64,000 nucleotides of DNA from Apteryx mantelli (lineage: Eukaryota > Chordata > Aves > Apterygiformes > Apterygidae). The translations under genes were made by a program, and so were the position numbers. Below are positions 49,400 to 59,991 of this stretch, piece by piece. The DNA is taken from positions 90,018,007-90,082,006 of the forward strand of contig NC_089978.1 in NCBI RefSeq assembly GCF_036417845.1, written 5' to 3'. The notes beneath the pieces are model-generated. The model was not told the DNA's origin. It saw only the letters and a list, made by a program, of their open reading frames with translations, and searched no databases. How positions within the stretch are numbered: position 1 is the stretch's first letter; the number at the start of each line of letters is the position of its first letter.

Positions 49400-50480
49400 C
49401 ACTCCATGAAGGCCGAGCAAAACCTGCTTCCAAAGCTCCGCAGCTTCCTGGCACACGAAGCCGGGGGCGAGATGCTGCCGGCAGGTGCCCGACGGGAGCG
49501 GCTCCTCCCCCGGGGCTCGGCACTAGCCAGCCCGCGGGTGCCCGGGGCCGCTTGGCGCCAGGCGGCAGCGCGGGGGCCGGGCTGTGCGCGCCGCCCCGGC
49601 TCCCCGCGGCTCCGCGGGCTAATGATTAACCGCCCCTCGGGCAGCGCCGAGCCGCCCGGGTGCGCGCACCGCGGCCCCGCAGTTCCCGAGGGGCCGGCCG
49701 GTCGGCAGGCACCGGCTCCGCTGCCGCCTCCCCGTCCCCGTCCCCGCTTCCCGCCGGCGCTGCCAGGGCACGGCGGCGGCGGCCGGCCATGGAGGGCGAG
49801 GCGAACGGGACCCTCCACCCGTCCTGCGGCGCCAGCGAGCCGCCCCACTCGCGGGAGCTCCTGCAGAGTAAGTGCCGCCGCGCGCGCGGCCGCGGCGAGG
49901 GGCGAAGCCCTCGGCGGGAGCAACGGGCTCGCGGCCGCCCTCCCCTCCCCCCCTTCCCGGGGGAGCCGTTAACGGCTGCCGGCGGCGCGCGCCGCGCTCA
50001 ACCGCCACTGGCGGCGGTTGGGCGCCGCGCCCTGCCCCCCCTCCCCCAGCGGGGGAAAGCCCGAGGGGAGGCGGAGGGCCCGGGGGCAGCGGGCGCGGTG
50101 GGGCTGCGCCGGGCGGAGGGAAGCGGCGCTGCGGGCACCTCCCTCGGCGGGAGGCGGCGGCACGCGGGGGCTGGCGCTGGACTCGCCCCGTGCCCGGGCC
50201 GCCGCGGTGAAGTGGGGCGAGCGCGGCTCTTACCAGGGCGCCGTGCCCTCCTCCGTGCCGGCCGGCCCTCCCCTCCCGCCCTCATGCCCACTCGGACTCC
50301 CCCAAAGATGCACCTGGGCTCCCCGGGGGCACGGCTCGGATCCCCTCCCAAACACGCAGCGCCCCCGTTCAAAAGTGCGGTAAATGTGTTCGCGCTTTCT
50401 GAACAGGCCGAGCGGCAGCGAGCATAGGGGGGCCCGTCACTCTGCGCCGGGACAGAGGCGGAGGAAGGCAGCCAAACGCA
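49400..50480 (+). promoter_or_regulatory. SLC51A-like: CpG-island promoter of the SLC51A-like gene
   Basis: A sharply bounded GC- and CpG-rich kilobase containing the start codon (49789) and first donor. No TATA box is seen. An AT-rich HNF1-type palindrome at 49618-49630 interrupts the GC-rich sequence. Long overlapping frames on both strands here reflect composition only. Confidence 0.8.
49618..49630 (+). promoter_or_regulatory. HNF1-type binding site
   Basis: GCTAATGATTAAC differs at one position from the palindromic HNF1 consensus GTTAATNATTAAC. It lies 159 bases upstream of the start codon in otherwise GC-rich sequence. HNF1 factors activate transporter genes in liver, kidney and intestine, the tissues where organic solute transporters work. 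Binding is inferred. Confidence 0.6.
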
Positions 50481-53400
50481 GCCGCCTTTGCTGCCCTCGC
50501 TGAAGGCCTGGCTGGGGACCAAGGTCTTGGTGAAATGGGTTGCCATGGCGCTGGCTTTGCTGCCTTTGGCTTTGGGGAAGAGAGACGGGACAGCAGGGTA
50601 CTGAGTCCAGAGCTGTGAAGGTGGTTAGAAAACAGTGTGGACAGGGGGAAGGCACTTGGGAGAGAGAGCCAGGGCTTCCTGGTAAATGCCACACTGAGCA
50701 CTAAACCCACAGTCTGCTCTCAACCCCACTGGTGAGATTTAAGGTCTGTCCAGTGAGATCTGGACTGCAACAAAATCTAGAAGTGATTTTTTTTTTTTTA
50801 AAGCACATTAGATTAAAAGGCTAGGAAGACTCTTGCTTACCTGTGCAGGCACCGTTTGGTATGTCTTAGATATGTTCCTGCCAAGGTAGGCCCAGGTTGG
50901 TGCAGGTGATGACCACATACACTTCCTAAATTAAGTATGACTTCATTGCAGCGCTTGCTTCTATCTCCAGAAGTTACCCAGTGTTAAGGGAAAAGGAAAA
51001 AAAAAAGAATTTGTTGGTGGCAAGTTTTATCCCAGCACAAATACACCAGGACCTTATACTTTCATTGCTCCTGTACCCCATAAACTTCTACTGAGCCTCT
51101 AAAAAGTTTGCATACCCAAGAAAGACAAACATGCGTTTGAACATGGAAGCAAAGAACTAATACTGAGTAAATAAAATTTTGCTTGTAGTTTGCCTGGTAA
51201 AGTTCCCAGAATAGCTTCTGTTGTTTGTTTACACTCATCTAAGAACATTTGTCCTAGAAGTCCACCTTTCTGATGGAGACTTCTGCATAATGCCATGCAA
51301 ATGTGGGCGCTTATTCTTCATGCATGCTGTCTGTGGATCCCCAAAAGATTTATTTATTAACTTAAGTTTAAGTACTTGAATCTTCCTGTTGAGTCAATGA
51401 TCCATGTCTGTAGCTAAGGATGAGTGCAAATCTTTGCAGGAATAGGACTAAGTAGTCCCTCCGAGAGGCTGTCTTTACATTAAACGTTGGGAATACTTAT
51501 GGTTTGAAACGCACTGTTTTGTTTTCCTTTTACGTTCTGTAGGCCTTGACCTGGCAGGTATTTTTCTCTTTGCAATCTTGACTCTGATGACGCTGATTGC
51601 CAGTCTGGTGTTTGTGGAGGAAGTGGTCTATATCTATAGAAAAATCCCCTCCTCCAAAAGATCAATCTTAATTTGGATAAACGCCGCAGCTCCGGTAAGT
51701 GTTGTGGAAAAGAGATAAAACTGAGTGTTGAAAATGCCGTTTCCCTGGAAAATCTATATTTATTTTGTGAACCTGCTTTACCTCTGCCCTTACTACAATC
51801 CTCCTCCCTTTCTGTATAGGTGATTACTACTACCTCATGCATTGGGATGTGGATTCCTCGCTCAACAATGTTTACAGATTTCACAGCGGCAGTGTGAGTA
51901 TTCTACTTGTTTCTAGACATTGCACCGAACCCTGAATTTCTTCCCTTTAAACATCTGCTACTCTTGGTAAACACAGTCATTTTGTAAATTTAACAATTTA
52001 GTAATTTTTAGTTTTAGTTTGAGTTGAAATCTCTTGGCGGCTCTTTTATGGTAAGTGGGAAATGCTGAAGTAGTTCCCAGTGCTGCAGCCCCCTAGTGTG
52101 GAACTGCTAGTATGAAAGAATTGTGACTTAAATGTAATTGAACTCTTTGATTGACAGCAGCTTTAAAGTAGTACTCTTTCTTTTCTCCCTGTGAATGTCA
52201 TGTAGAATGAGATTCTGACCTGTGACTTCTGTACTGTGCTTTTATTAATGATGAGCTGTAGAGGTCTATTTTTAGTGGTGGCAAGTGAACCTCCAATAAG
52301 TATATCAATGTAAAAATGTTCTGCAGTTGTCCTGATAAAAGCACTTTCTGCACGAGCATGACAGCTCTGACATGAACAGGGAATAACAGAAAAATGTGGT
52401 TCCTGGTTCCTGGAGGTGATGGTGTAGCCCTTGTAGGCAAAGCCTAGCAGGGGGATGCTGTGTGGCGGTGTGCACTCCAGGAGCGCCGAGATGATTTTGG
52501 AACCCACTGCAGGACAGAATCACAAACTCTCATGGTTAGCCTTACCCCATAACACACTGCATTTACAAAGAGAGCAGAGTAAAAAGGAGGGAAAACACAG
52601 TAGGAGGGAGCACTGCTAACGCATAGCAATTTGTGCAGCAAATTGCAGATTGCCAGAGACTTCCAAGGATCCAGTCCTATGGTACTTTAATCTTAATTCC
52701 CCCTCCTCCCTTGCCCCAGATGCAGGTTCCTGTCCCCTTCCTTGCACCACCACTCACACTTCTCCAGCTGCACAGTGAGCTTGTTCAAGGAGCCAGTGCA
52801 ATTGAAGAGGACCTCTTCTATTTTGTGGATTTCTGTTTGTTGGATTTTAGTGGATCGGTTCCCTAAATCAGTTGGGGGCAGGGAGGAAAGGATGGTTGCA
52901 CAATCTGTAGTTCCTGGGAAGGGTTGAAAATGTGCAACTGGTGAAGGAGGGAGAGGCGGAGTTGTAGCAGTCTGTGCTTGGATCTGCTTTGGCTGCAGAG
53001 GAACCACACCCTGACCAGGACAGCACATATGATGTTAGCTAAATATATATATGAATGTAGCCATGTATTTTTTTGTAAGTAGAAATAGGACTTGTTCTGA
53101 AAAGTTTGGACCAGTCAGGACTAGCTAACTGATACAAAAACATGGCCCTAATGACTTGGGCCAGAAATTCCTGTGCTTAAATACTGACTCTGCCACCAAG
53201 CACCAGTGTGGCTTTGGGCAATTCAACAACTGCTTTGTGTCTCAGTTTATTCCTCTTTCAATGGAGTTATAGCAGTTCTGGCCCTCCAAGGTGATGGGAA
53301 GCTGATGATTTTTTACAGCTAGTGCTAGAATTTCTGCTGATTGCAAAGCACAAGCTTTAAAAACCCTCAACAGCAGAAGGTACTAGCCTATGCAGGCATA

Positions 53401-56400
53401 TGAGAGACATGCAGGAAAAGTTCAAGCTGGCATTTTCTTCCTCTCCTAGATTTTTTGCCATAGTTATCCACAAGTTCCTGCTGATGATGATTAAAGAGTG
53501 CGGCGGTCAAAAGCTATTCCTCAGGCGGTTTGAAAATGGTCGCTTCAAGATCAGTACAGGCCCCTGCTGTTGCTGCTGCCTTTGCCTCCCTGGTGTGCGC
53601 ATCACTAGGTGAGTTGCCCTTTAAGATTTCCCAGCTGGAAAACTGCTGCTGGAATCCAGCCAACTTGGCAAGGCCACATTTACAGCAAAGGGCCTCCCTG
53701 CTTCCTGAAAACACTCTCTTGGCTCTTGTGATTGAGATCTCCTCTGTCAGTCTCAAGCTGTCTCTTTTAAACAGTACCATCACTTTATTAGGGCTGTACA
53801 ACACGGCTAATTTATTTCATTTTTATTAATGCAGAATTTTGCTTAAAAGTAGAGAGCATGAGATAACTCATTTTTAACCCAGTGCAGTGTTCCCACTTGC
53901 AGTCATGTTGAGCAATGCGTTATCCCTCCAACTAGTCCCGTTCTTTTCCAAGAAACCATTTGTGTACTAAGCAGTAGTGTGTGGGAGGGGGAATTTCCAT
54001 TCTAGAAACAATAATAACTGAGCTTTCAGTTTCTTTTCATACCAGAAGAGAACAAATGACTCCAAATTGAATACTTTCCACAAACAGAATTTTCAAATTG
54101 AGGTTGACTTGAAAGAAAATTTCTCTTACTTTGATAAATTTGAAATGCTTCATTCTGATTTTAACTTTGAAAGTACTTCAGATTAAAATAATTTTTAGAA
54201 CAAAAAAGGTGTAATTCCTGGAAAGCTTTGATCTCCATGAAATGGCATTGTCTAGTGAGACAAAACCAAATATTTTATTCTACTAAACTAATAAGGCACT
54301 TCAGGGAAGGGTGGTAAGGATGGGGAGCTGCACCTACAGATAGGAGCCAATATACTGTACCATAAACCCTGCCTCCTTCCTGCATTGCGTGGTAGGGCCC
54401 CTCCTCCAGCTAGTATCATGCTGTCATTTACATGCTTCTCCACAATATTTGCAGCCTGAAAGCCTCAGCGATTTCCCAGGGCTTTTCTACTGGCACAGAG
54501 TATGGGAGTGTTTCTCACATTAAGAGCAAAAAGCTCAAGGATTGAACGTGCAAGATACAGAGAAGTTTCTACGAGGGCCTGGACATTAATGCTGGAGGGA
54601 CCTCAGGGACTTTATGGTCTAGTTAAGTGAAAGCAGCAAGGAGAATGCAGCCTACCTCACTGTCAGTCCAGTGAGAGCTTATCCAGGAATATGAGAGGGC
54701 TGGTGATATTAGCTTGTAGCTGTCCATTTGGAAAAAAATAAAAGCTTCTTTGCTCTGCAGAAGAGCTTAGGGCTCCTTCTCTTGAGTTTGTAGTACTGGG
54801 AAACTTATCTGCTGTTTATGCTCCTGACTTCCAGCCTTTTCCCATTACAGGTAACAATGTTTTTGAAAAATGGGCAAGGTATACCAGAGAAAGATCAGTC
54901 TCGGATTCCTTCCACAGATATCTTCTGGGGAAGCAGGGAGCTACTCCAAGGGAGGAACTCATTCTTTAAAAATATGGTATACTATCAAGCGGTCCGGGGA
55001 AGGTAACAAGGTACAGTGGACAGATGAGGCAGTGTAACAAGCCATACAATGGAGAGATGTGGCAGGAGAAATCTGAGGGTAAAGAATGGTAGACCTGTGT
55101 TGACAAGGAAAAAAACACCTGGTGTTGCAGTGACAGCACTGTTTGTCATGTTATTCTTTAAAGCCCTTTGGGAATAATGAACCTTTGAAAAGGTGTATGC
55201 ACTAAATGGCTGGCCTGTTGTAGGCCATTCCACAAGTGTTTGTGCTGTTCATAGTCCCATAGTTATTAGCTATCTTAATTGAGCAATTCAAGTAATTCCT
55301 GTTTCATGGCTATATGCTGTAACGTATATTAAATGGCAGCCTGTTGTCTGCTAAGGCATCTGTGATGGGAGTCTCAAGGGATCAAGAAACTGCAGTGCAG
55401 ACAATAATATAAAAGAGTATGGGAAATGCACAGTAATAGACTAAGACATGAGCCAGCTGTAGCAGCCAAAGCTTGTCCTGTGAAGACCAAAGGTGAGCTG
55501 AAGTCAACTTTCATGTCCGTTGTTTGCCTGTGCATCTGCCCCTTTTCTGGTGATGTTTAATATTGGATGGCCAGGTTATTGTATATGAGCTGCGTTCTGA
55601 ATAAAGATTACACTGATAGATAGGAGAAAGAAAATCCTGAGCTGTCCTGCTGGCCATGTGCAGTTTACCAAGGGAAGGCTAGCTCCTTTCTCCTGTTAGG
55701 TACAGAGAAGCAAAACCAGATGCTGATGCAGTAGTATTCATGATGCATTGAAAAATTACCAGTCCTTTCACCTAAGTCTGTGTAATTCCTTTTCTTGATT
55801 TACCAGACGACTAAGAATTAGCTGAACGGGAAGGTAGAGTCAGATAGAAGCACTGCACATGACATGGATTGAAGCTCTGTAGTAGTTTGCCATTCAGCTG
55901 CAAAGGCTGAATTGCTCAGTTTCATCCGAAAAGTGAAATAGTAAGGCAATGTGACAGAGCGAGTGGCGTTATCATTCAGAGACCCATTATGCTGCTACAG
56001 GCTCCCTCATTAGCTCTGGAGCAGAGAAAGACATCACATTTTGCCCAGCTTTGGTTAGTAGGTAATTGGTGCAGAATAAGAGTACTATTTTTGTAGAGGC
56101 TCTACTAAACAAGCATCTGGGTAATTCTTGGAAGGATTTTTGTATCTTGAAGCTGTTCCTCCCCAGATATTAGCCATGTCCTGTAGGACTGTAGGAGTGG
56201 AGAAATTTTACTGTCTGACAGTATCCAAAAAATGTTATTAAGGTTGTTAATTGGCCTGTGTGACTTTTTTTTTTTTTTTTAATTTGTCAGGCGAACCCTC
56301 CTTTGGCTGAAGTTGGGCACCTTTCAGTTTGCTTTCTTTCGACCTGTGCTCATGTTTCTATCAATAGTGCTTTGGACCAATGGCGATTACAGCCCTTATA

Positions 56401-59400
56401 ATGTAAGTAAATATTGTAATGAGCAGCAGCCCACAAAGTCCATAGTTTTGGGGCTGATGTTAGTATCTTGGCCAACACCTAAACTGTGGGATCTGGGAAC
56501 ACTTCCAAGTATCTCCTGACATTGTTCTGTTAAGAAGAGATCCTGAAGTGTATCATTTCTCCCTTCCCCTAGACTCTTGATTTGCTGGCTTCTCTTGGAA
56601 AGAAACTGAGTGTCAGGGTGGTTTGGGCATCAGATTATGCTCCAACACATGGCCCAGTCTATATGGTGTGGGGATCAGGACTGCAAGATGGCCTGTGAGA
56701 TGTACCTGCCCTGTTTTGTAAGATGCAGCCTTAAGAAACATGTACTGTGCATAAACAGGAAACCTAATTAAGTATTTTTCTGCAAGTTGTGGAGGTTTTT
56801 TATATCCTTGCAAGGTAGAAAAGATAGTAAAGGTAGTACTGTACTTTCACTTTGTACTGTGTAAGCTGCAAGATGATGGAGAAGTAGGCTCTCATTGGGT
56901 TGCAACAAGTGCTTTGAGCCAATATTTAGGATCCTTGCTACAGCTGAATAAGCTATAACATTTCCCTTGATGTCAGTCTTTTCAGTAACGGTGTCTTAAA
57001 AATAGACATTTCAAACCTTTATTGTGGTGTGGCTCATGCAGACACTTTCTTCTTTTTTGCCATTAAAGAGTCAGTGAGTCCAGAGGGGAATGCTGTACAA
57101 ACAGGACCATCCCACAGCATTAAGAATTCCTTGCAAACTTTAAAACAAGGCCTGTGGAGCACATGAGAAAGCTGTGTTCCCTTTGTGCCTTCCTGTGGTT
57201 GAAAGGTTTCATGATCACCAAAGCTGAAGAAAGTCTGTAACTGCTAAGAATTTTGCATCTCTTGGGTAACTCAGACTAAAAGCAATACTGTATTTTTTGT
57301 GTTGTTTCATGGTACTAAAATAAATGACCCCTCTAAGATGTCACGTTGTGAATGCTCTCATGAGCTGCTGAGCCTTCTCAGGTGCTGCTGCAGTCAGGTT
57401 GAGGGGTCATGTCACTTGCTGCCTTTGCAGGACTGAACAGATTCACCCAGAGGGTGGGAGTGCTATGGCACCGCTCCAGTTAGTACTGTGCACTTTCCAG
57501 TGCAAACCTGAGCAACCCCTGCTAACTTCAGCTTTTGTGGAGACAGAAGCAAGCATTTTAATGTCTGCATCCTCCAGTTCATAACGTCTACCTTGAAATA
57601 GTAAAATTTACATTGTCAAGTTTTATAAGTATGTTTGTTTGATTTGCTTCTCAGTTATCTCTTAAAGGAGCTGCGATATGGATTAGCTGCTTCATTGGTA
57701 TCCTTACCATTATTGCTCTGTGGCCAGTTGGAATCATGTTTCAACAAGTTAGGGCTCTCCTTAACTGTAAGAAGATCATCCCTAAGTTTGCTCTTTATCA
57801 GGTGAGAAATTTAACATTTTTGGTAAGCGTTTCTATTACTGTTGATACAATGCTGTCTCTCTGGTTCTTGGTCCTTTATTTAAAGGTTATGTTTTTTTTT
57901 TTTTCCATAAAACACACTGTACAAAGGCATATTTTTACCTGATTAAAACTGTACTGCATCTATTCAAAGCATTCTCCTTGGCTGCTGTTCAGTTTAGCGT
58001 GAGCTGAGTTACTTCTGGTCTCTCAGAAGTGCTGGAGATTTGAGCTGTTTAAAATCCGTTCATCTTTAGGCTGTGGAAATCAAAACACCACCTTCTGCAA
58101 GGCTTGAAGGAAGCTTTGGACATGCAGTATCCTGAAACACAATGTTAAAATGCTGGTGTGTACTTAAAAACTAGGAGAGGATGTGGAGCATTGTGTGGGT
58201 GGCTTTTGTTTGAACTGTTTTAGCAGGGCATGGTGTTCTGTTTTGAAAGTATTTTTCTTGGCCATTCTGCATTTCAGAGTTAGATAATAATGAAAATACT
58301 GTCTGGGAATCATTAAACAATAAAGAAAAGAACCAGATAGTTAGGCTGAATAAGTCCAGGGATAGGACCACCCTCTCCCACATAACCCTGAAGAAAGAAA
58401 AAGAGTAAGGTAGAATCCCTGGATATGCATCCTGCTTGTAGAGGACATGTAGAAAGACTGTGCATCAAGGTGTCTGTTAAGAAAATTATTAAATGCTTAT
58501 AAATGCAATAGACAGGATGGTAAGCAGTCGTCACATCCGCAAAACTGCATTAGTGCGAATCCAAGTTTAAGATGGCAAACTCCGTTCATGTGAGGGTTTA
58601 TATCCAGGCAATAACACCAGCAGCTAAAGAGACACTCTTGATATCTCCAAAGCAGAGAAGGTCTAGCTCAGTGAATAGCAGGTAATATGATGCATAAGTG
58701 ACTACTGTCGAACCCAAGCTGCAGAGTCCTTCATCCTTCATTCCTTCTGGCAAGGAAGCCACTTCTGTATAACTTGGGGAGCACCACATCTCCCTGCTCT
58801 GGCAAACAGATGAGCCAATAAAAGAAGCATGCCTCAAATACTTCCTCCCACTAAGGGAGAGCATGAGCTCATAGTTAGATTAATGGGAAGCGTTTTAAAC
58901 CTTTTTAATCTAATATTCAGAGCTCAATATTGGTTTAAATCCCAGCAGGGAGCTCTGTATATTTTGCAGTTCCAGAATGAAGTGCTGAGATGAATCACTT
59001 TTAGAATAGAGAGGTTTAATTTAGTTATCATATGCACAGCAATATCATCCTGACCAAAGGATGCATCCTTCAGAATGGCAGGCAGCCTGCTGGTAGATGG
59101 GAGGTGAGGAGGGCAAGAAAGGAAGAATGAGGTGAAACAGGGTCTATTATGAAAGCAGAATTGGTGTGTGAACTATAATCCTTCTGCTGGTAGCTAAAGT
59201 ATCTGTTTTCTCTTCCTGCTGCAGTTTATCCTCATTCTGAGCCAGCTGCAGGCAGCTATTATCAACATCTTGGCTATGCAAAGAATTATTCCCTGTATTC
59301 CACCACTCTCCTCTTCAGCAAGAGGAGCACGTAAGTTCTTTTGGAAGGGGGTGTTCTTCATTTACTTACAGAGGTGTCAGTTCATTATTGCTAACTGCAG

Positions 59401-59991
59401 TATCTGGCGTTTTCCTGAAATATTAATTTCCTGGGATCGCGTAGCCTTTTGAGAATCTCAGCTTTTATTTAAGAACAATAACAAAACTTTTCTAGCTCTC
59501 ATAGTTGCAGATGAAAGCTTGATAGTGAGAAGAGTTAGAATCAGAAATCAGAGGACAAGAAACCAACAACTATAATTATTGTTAAATCTCATGGATTTTG
59601 GATGCGTATCTTACTGCATGCTTATGGATGGGCAATACTTTAATTCTCTGATATTATTGCTGAGTGTGAGATATGCTCCATTATGGGAGTAGGGTAGTAA
59701 AATTTGTCCCTTTTGCACAGACAGGAATGAATAAGCTATTCATTCCTTGCCTGATCCTCATGTTCCTGGGTTTTTTTTGCTTTTTTCCCCCTCTTTTTGG
59801 CAGATATGACCCAACAGCTTCTCATCATGGAGATGTTTCTGATAACCCTAATCTCAAGGGTGGTCTATCGGAGAAGATACGATGATCTAGAGCCTCCAGA
59901 GTGTACCCCTGAAGAAGGCGGGGACAACAAGCAGACTCCTAAGATTATCCTGAATGGTGCAATTAGTGAAGATGGATTGCTGGGGGTTTAG
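49789..59991 (+). CDS. SLC51A-like: Organic solute transporter alpha-like protein (spliced, 8 exons)
   Basis: Exons: 49789-49867, 51543-51694, 51820-51893, 53450-53608, 56291-56402, 57655-57801, 59225-59330, 59804-59991. All junctions are GT-AG with matching phases. The sum is 1,017 nt, giving 338 residues plus TAG; human SLC51A has 340. The ATG has a strong Kozak context and is the first in-frame ATG. Rough membrane segments: 28-52, 66-86, 97-116, 164-184, 197-218, 239-260 and 278-297, the seven-pass OST-alpha layout. Family landmarks are GMWIPRS (about 86-92), the cysteine cluster [11 protein letters not shown] (139-149), GTFQFAFF (164-171), KFALYQ (236-241) and RVVYRRR before the cytoplasmic tail. 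An N-glycosylation sequon NGT (6-8) is near the N-terminus. SLC51A pairs with SLC51B to export bile acids and steroid conjugates across the basolateral membrane; that this protein does so is inferred. It is clearly diverged from canonical SLC51A, so it is probably a paralog. No frameshift or stop is seen; it looks functional. Confidence 0.9.
49868..51542 (+). other. SLC51A-like intron 1
   Basis: The first 600 bases belong to the CpG island and the rest is AT-rich. No exon or recognisable repeat is seen. Confidence 0.7.
52163..52992 (-). CDS. Unidentified antisense coding candidate in SLC51A-like intron 3 (two exon-like blocks, partial)
   Basis: I do not recognise this product. Block A (52992 down to 52758) follows an acceptor-like CTCTGCAG and ends at a donor GTGAGT. 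It stays open for 78 codons plus one base and has a proline-rich stretch followed by a predicted helix with heptad-like hydrophobics (around [14 protein letters not shown] and [11 protein letters not shown]). A second possible acceptor with an excellent pyrimidine tract lies at 52863, giving a shorter 105-base exon. Block B starts at 52506 after CTGTCCTGCAG, in the matching phase, and is open to a TAA at 52163. Its first 100 bases are unusually GC-rich for this intron, and the peptide contains [16 protein letters not shown]. The joined frame is continuous. No start codon exon, further exons or family match was found. It could be a nested gene, a decayed gene remnant or chance. Confidence 0.3.
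53175..53275 (+). mobile_element. MIR-like SINE fragment
   Basis: The stretch has the MIR core order: ACTGACTCTGCCACC, then GTGTGGCTTTGGGCAA, then GTGTCTCAGTTTATTCCTC and a run like CAATGGAGTTATA. This corresponds to the MIR consensus GGCTCTGCCACT, TGTGACCTTGGGCAA, TGCCTCAGTTTCCTC and AAATGGGGATAATA. It is diverged but colinear over about 100 bases, 175 bases upstream of exon 4. Confidence 0.65.
53609..56290 (+). other. SLC51A-like intron 4
   Basis: About 2.7 kb, AT-rich, ending in an 18-base T-run and a strong acceptor. No exon or clearly recognisable repeat is seen. A short segment near 54590-54625 weakly resembles a CR1 3' end. Confidence 0.65.
56403..59224 (+). other. SLC51A-like introns 5 and 6 (either side of exon 6)
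   Basis: Apart from exon 6 (57655-57801) this is AT-rich intron with no supportable gene or recognisable mobile element. Confidence 0.65.

What the first reader, a model, noticed from the sequence alone, without database searches (positions are those of the whole stretch)
49789..59991. An intact SLC51A paralog sits next to ZFX and may be a 2R ohnolog lost from the human locus
The eight exons join without error into a 338-residue OST-alpha-type protein, yet it differs at most positions from human SLC51A. In human, SLC51A adjoins PCYT1A on 3q29, whereas ZFX is followed by PDK3 and PCYT1B on Xp22. PCYT1A and PCYT1B are themselves paralogs, so an SLC51A relative beside ZFX fits one duplicated ancestral block. 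The human ZFX-PDK3 interval has no such gene. This would be a second, little-studied bile-acid/steroid transporter alpha subunit.
Basis: partly seen in the sequence, partly recalled or inferred. Interest (0 to 1): 0.75.

Follow-up and report, generated by a model that had tools for sequence, protein, structure and literature searches.

The report
Second OST-alpha gene beside ZFX
A kiwi genome carries, beside ZFX, an intact sister gene of the bile-acid and steroid exporter subunit SLC51A; the two copies look like the product of an ancient duplication of a chromosome block early in vertebrate history, and the copy seen here appears to be missing from placental and marsupial mammals.

Summary
Eight exons at 49789-59991 (+) join into an intact 338-residue OST-alpha-family protein. 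The genome is brown kiwi. [quoted passage not shown] my paper searches found none that treats it as an ohnolog. The two copies share 38.1% identity, seven of seven intron positions and phases, and five identical exon lengths. Each lies tail to tail with a PCYT1 gene, PDK3 standing between on C1; IL1RAP and IL1RAPL1 lie 1.4 and 2.4 Mb away. Relatives nearer to it than to SLC51A occur in sharks, ray-finned fish, amphibians, sauropsids and monotremes; no named therian is among the 120 listed of 515 hits. A 2R-age ohnolog lost on the therian line is the best reading. The root of the tree, OST-beta pairing and transport remain unresolved or untested.

The parts
49501..50500 (.). CpG-rich stretch over the promoter region and first exon
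   Evidence: two 500-base bins with GC 0.82 and 0.76, CpG observed/expected 1.01 and 0.84
49789..49867 (+). exon 1, start codon, exit phase 1
   Evidence: gtaagt donor
51543..51694 (+). exon 2, exit phase 0
   Evidence: holds most of the first long predicted helix (residues 30-60)
51820..51893 (+). exon 3, exit phase 2
   Evidence: 74 nt, same length as in the C9 SLC51A gene
53450..53608 (+). exon 4, exit phase 2; holds the GPCCCCCxC motif
   Evidence: 159 nt, same length in the C9 gene; skipped in RefSeq isoform X2 P0021
56291..56402 (+). exon 5, exit phase 0
   Evidence: 112 nt in both genes
57655..57801 (+). exon 6, exit phase 0
   Evidence: 147 nt in both genes
59225..59330 (+). exon 7, exit phase 1
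   Evidence: 106 nt in both genes
59804..59991 (+). exon 8 with stop codon
7344..8006 (+). ZFX exon with the acidic activation region (upstream neighbour)
   Evidence: PF04704 199.7 bits
22219..23403 (+). zinc-finger exon of ZFX (upstream neighbour)
   Evidence: zf-C2H2 families; assigned to ZFX by strand and order after the PF04704 exon

Best explanation
[not shown]
Against: The root is not fixed. With kiwi TMEM184 exon pieces as outgroup (a 9.7-unit branch) the tree ends in an unresolved three-way fork of sharks, of C + third fish type + lamprey (83/90) and of bony-vertebrate Z (98/93): type Z with sharks is then not a rooted clade, and a root on C is not rejected (p-AU 0.067). Lamprey placement is weak (p-AU 0.19 for lamprey with C, 0.185 for lamprey outside). 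No type C was seen in fish or sharks in the lists, so many losses are needed. Of linked pairs outside OST-alpha and PCYT1 only IL1RAP/IL1RAPL1 was confirmed; the CLC family gave no usable pair and neuroligins did not complete. A large segmental duplication of the same age would look alike. No data bear on transport; the OST-beta family gave no match in the kiwi genome at E <= 0.001, with an empty control.
Confidence: 0.78

Rival explanations
1. A recent bird- or sauropsid-specific duplicate of SLC51A.
For: Both copies are present in birds and reptiles.
Against: p-AU 2.65e-32 for bird-only and 0.003 for tetrapod-only; near relatives in monotremes, amphibians, ray-finned fish and sharks; 38.1% identity within one genome.
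Confidence: 0.01
2. An ancient segmental duplication (block copied with PCYT1) before or near the jawed-vertebrate ancestor, not a whole-genome duplication.
For: The same local anatomy would result; only three pairs (OST-alpha, PCYT1, IL1RAP/IL1RAPL1) were confirmed.
Against: The IL1RAP/IL1RAPL1 pair lies 1.4 and 2.4 Mb from the OST-alpha copies, so the block would have to be more than a megabase long.
Confidence: 0.1
3. Types C and Z arose within bony vertebrates (after sharks split off), and lamprey and the third fish lineage are misplaced by long branches.
Against: The outgroup branch is 9.7 units long; without it sharks, ray-finned and tetrapod Z are one side of a branch at 100/93, and lamprey and third-type fish lie on the other side.
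Confidence: 0.09
4. An OST-alpha homolog that no longer transports, kept for another role.
For: No activity data found; nine positions are conserved within each type but differ between Z and C.
Against: 46 positions are at least 90% conserved and identical in both types, among them most of the cysteine motif and W, P, G and Q positions; the predicted fold is full length.
Confidence: 0.12

Closest known systems
Human SLC51A (OST-alpha), cryo-EM 9ljg/9uo2/9unv
   Same: PF03619 domain, seven helices, GPCCCCCxC motif, predicted fold TM 0.82-0.86; the kiwi gene of its type has the same 7 introns
   Different: paralog, not ortholog: 36.6% identity, other locus (ZFX-PDK3 instead of PCYT1A)
Canonical SLC51A of kiwi, C9:13069438-13072021
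   Same: 8 coding exons found, same intron phases, tail to tail with a PCYT1 gene
   Different: 38.1% identity; span about 2.6 kb (5' end open) against 10.2 kb; GC3 0.81 against 0.54; its start codon was not resolved
Ray-finned fish and shark proteins annotated as OST-alpha / slc51a
   Same: same side of the tree as the window gene, 28 of 31 ray-finned and 5 of 5 cartilaginous rows, 100/93; Goodea copy next to PDK3
   Different: several fish carry more than one; 3 of 31 ray-finned rows form another lineage with lamprey (98/87); with an outgroup the sharks' place is unresolved
E1BTD2 of chicken (PMC4592991, passages read)
   Same: OST-alpha-like gene between EIF2S3 and PCYT1B on GGA1; its residue F129 is also F129 in the kiwi protein
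   Different: sequence not compared here

Membership tests
OST-alpha family (SLC51A / PF03619) | PF03619 domain over curated cut-off | tested here: met
   167.9 bits, cut-off 24.9, residues 36-300 of the spliced protein. Searched exon by exon in the genome the family model did not pick up the window gene
OST-alpha family (SLC51A / PF03619) | seven-helix fold of solved OST-alpha | tested here: met
OST-alpha family (SLC51A / PF03619) | conserved cysteine motif and family-invariant residues | tested here: met
   46 columns at least 90% conserved and identical in types Z and C, including G139-P140, C142-C145 and C147; third-type and lamprey rows not counted
OST-alpha family (SLC51A / PF03619) | obligate OST-beta (SLC51B) partner | tested here: inconclusive
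   PF15048 gave no match in the kiwi genome at E <= 0.001 and none in the controls
OST-alpha family (SLC51A / PF03619) | bile-acid / steroid transport | not testable with these tools
   needs expression and uptake assay
Ortholog of human SLC51A | same clade as human SLC51A to the exclusion of the paralog | tested here: not met
   separate groups, 100/99 and 100/100; canonical gene elsewhere in the same genome
2R ohnolog pair | both copies in one genome, unlinked | tested here: met
   C1 and C9 in kiwi. By stated contig length also on different contigs in Tachyglossus, Rhineura, Paroedura and Carettochelys and on two short scaffolds in Alectura
2R ohnolog pair | paralogous neighbours | tested here: met
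   PCYT1B/PCYT1A tail to tail; IL1RAPL1/IL1RAP within 2.4 Mb. The CLC family was also looked at and gave no usable pair
2R ohnolog pair | duplication older than tetrapods | tested here: met
   tetrapod-only origin rejected p-AU 0.003
2R ohnolog pair | duplication older than the jawed-vertebrate radiation, with the root placed by an outgroup | tested here: inconclusive

The most novel reading that the evidence does not exclude
Three OST-alpha ohnologs (Z, C and a third type now seen in lamprey, reedfish, sturgeon and bonytongue) existed in early vertebrates, each with its own substrate or tissue. The genes called OST-alpha or slc51a in the sharks and most ray-finned fish sampled are the ZFX-side type that therian mammals lost, so much fish OST-alpha work would concern a gene without a human ortholog.
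Probability: 0.4. Interest if true: 0.65.

Novelty: new member of a known kind. Interest (0 to 1): 0.5.

Why it matters
If type Z transports, most jawed vertebrates have two OST-alpha routes for steroids and bile acids and therians kept one. It would change how fish and bird 'SLC51A' data are carried over to humans, since the fish and shark genes sampled here are nearer to the copy that therians seem to lack. It also gives a clean, intron-for-intron pair for testing how a transporter subunit splits its job after genome duplication.

Tried and rejected
Bird-specific duplication: rejected. Tetrapod-specific duplication: rejected, p-AU 0.003. C plus the third fish type without lamprey: p-AU 0.028; third type with the Z side without lamprey: 0.185; C with lamprey: 0.194; lamprey placement left open. 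TMEM184 rooting: unresolved. CLC channels as a linked pair: C1 and C9 both hold CLC genes, but I judge them (recalled) to be of different subfamilies, so they were not counted. Neuroligins (PF00135) were asked for repeatedly and never answered. OST-beta: no match, control empty. Rfam on the window: 0 matches at gathering scores. A DHHC part fused to a fish OST-alpha prediction is closest to DHHC20, so it is no evidence for a C-type neighbourhood. An unnamed type-Z protein (P0093) among the 120 was checked in case it was therian: it branches outside the tetrapods (85/76, long tip), not with monotremes; two other unnamed rows, P0108 and P0117, have teleost proteins as their nearest (75-86% identity in the seven best rows). 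Papers: (ten answered searches of the open-licence PMC library, the cap). Six papers were opened, all for passages only: PMC13157367, PMC4592991, PMC7011509, PMC10900267, PMC4924846, PMC6151027. One search listed 4 papers with the phrase 'solute transporter subunit alpha-like', of which three were opened and PMC13295433 was not; in the passages seen none treats the gene as an ohnolog. A claim of absence from print rests on these searches alone.

Full report
What is there. The window lies at C1:90018007-90082006 of a 1.50-Gb assembly. C1 is 222926480 bases long, the same length as the contig of the Apteryx mantelli protein P0021, and P0021 equals the window protein except for skipped exon 4, so the window is brown kiwi. 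The eight exons, with gt donors and ag acceptors, give 338 residues without a stop, in family PF03619. A CpG-rich stretch covers the first exon. ZFX lies upstream on the same strand.

The second copy. With the Apteryx owenii canonical protein (P0227) the kiwi genome gave 10 matches: 8 on C9:13.069-13.072 Mb at 70-96% identity and 2 on the window gene at 37 and 39%. The joined C9 gene has 8 coding exons; its first exon is open at the 5' end and no start codon was assigned. Seven of 7 introns share alignment column and phase with the window gene, and exons 3-7 have the same lengths. Identity is 122 of 320 aligned residues, 38.1%. The PF03619 model itself gave 14 matches: on C1:164.76 Mb, C16 and C5, which I take to be TMEM184 genes (recalled, not tested), and one on the C9 gene; it gave none on the window gene, whose exons evidently score too low one by one.

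Neighbourhood. On C1, in order: EIF2S3 (+), ZFX (+), the window gene (+), PDK3 (+), PCYT1B (-); on C9: SLC51A (+), PCYT1A (-). The PDK piece scores 270.7 bits to PDK3 and 200.6 to PDK1. The PCYT1 pieces score 369 (C1) and 413 (C9) bits to choline-phosphate cytidylyltransferase A; that the C1 gene is the B isoform follows from the lower score and from chicken, where PCYT1B lies next to the OST-alpha-like gene E1BTD2 (PMC4592991, passages). EIF2S3 was found with a recalled sequence only. TIR-domain hits include IL1RAPL1 at C1:92.48 Mb (225.9 bits) and IL1RAP at C9:14.44 Mb (181 bits); another C9 TIR exon at 14.43 Mb is of that family without a clear best. In the fish Goodea a run-on prediction joins OST-alpha to PDK3 (253.5 bits against 200.1 for PDK1).

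Distribution. One search listed 120 of 515 hits: birds, turtles, crocodilians, squamates, tuatara, amphibians, echidna, platypus and ray-finned fish; no named therian is among the 120, and of three unnamed rows two are teleost-like and one branches outside the tetrapods. One search with human SLC51A scored only the 7998 candidates sharing most words and listed 120 of 284: mammals, echidna, gavial, turtles, squamates, tinamou, kiwi, and some unnamed rows. One search listed 110 of 110 at E <= 1e-6 among proteins of about 332 residues or more that share words with the sturgeon query: it added sharks, chimaera, lamprey, bichir, reedfish and a frog type C.

How it likely works. By family and fold it is the alpha subunit of a facilitative exporter that needs OST-beta (reported for SLC51A; PMC4924846 passages). 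Whether type Z pairs with the same beta subunit is open, and I could not find OST-beta in the kiwi genome by the tool at hand. A rainbow trout paper names two alpha genes, slc51a1 and slc51a2; slc51a1 was high in fat tissue and raised by bile acids, slc51a2 low there but higher in hypothalamus (PMC13157367, passages). Which types these are was not settled, though the O. mykiss protein sampled (P0248) falls on the Z side.

Verdict. Real, intact, annotated in databases, apparently unstudied as an ohnolog in the papers searched.

Noticed in passing
P0285, P0287, P0289, P0290: A third OST-alpha lineage: sturgeon, reedfish and bonytongue proteins group with sea lamprey (98/87); it may be a third ohnolog or the fish counterpart of type C.
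   Followed up: partly
window 53450-53608: RefSeq isoform X2 of kiwi (P0021) skips exon 4, removing 53 residues in frame including the cysteine motif; other birds have records of about 285-290 residues in the hit list that were not examined.
   Followed up: partly
chicken GGA1, E1BTD2 (PMC4592991): A nonsynonymous F129I variant in the chicken OST-alpha-like gene is listed among candidates for a meat-pH QTL (passages); F129 is the same residue in kiwi.
   Followed up: no
[quoted passage not shown] the column heading was not read, it may be a dN/dS ratio.
   Followed up: no
P0288, P0291, P0294: Three fish predictions carry a DHHC palmitoyltransferase domain fused to OST-alpha; the one tested (P0288) is nearest DHHC20, so a DHHC gene likely neighbours some fish copies.
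   Followed up: partly
Z_echidna, Z_platypus in the tree: Monotreme type Z sits on a long stem (0.54), i.e. faster evolution in the mammal line, which seems to have kept it only in monotremes.
   Followed up: no
P0093: An unnamed type-Z protein on a 1751-base contig branches just outside the tetrapods (85/76); it may come from a lobe-finned fish.
   Followed up: partly
window 55003-55065: A two-copy 33-base tandem repeat in intron 4.
   Followed up: no
kiwi C1 gene versus C9 gene: The C9 SLC51A gene is compact (about 2.6 kb, GC3 0.81) while the window gene spans 10.2 kb (GC3 0.54).
   Followed up: no
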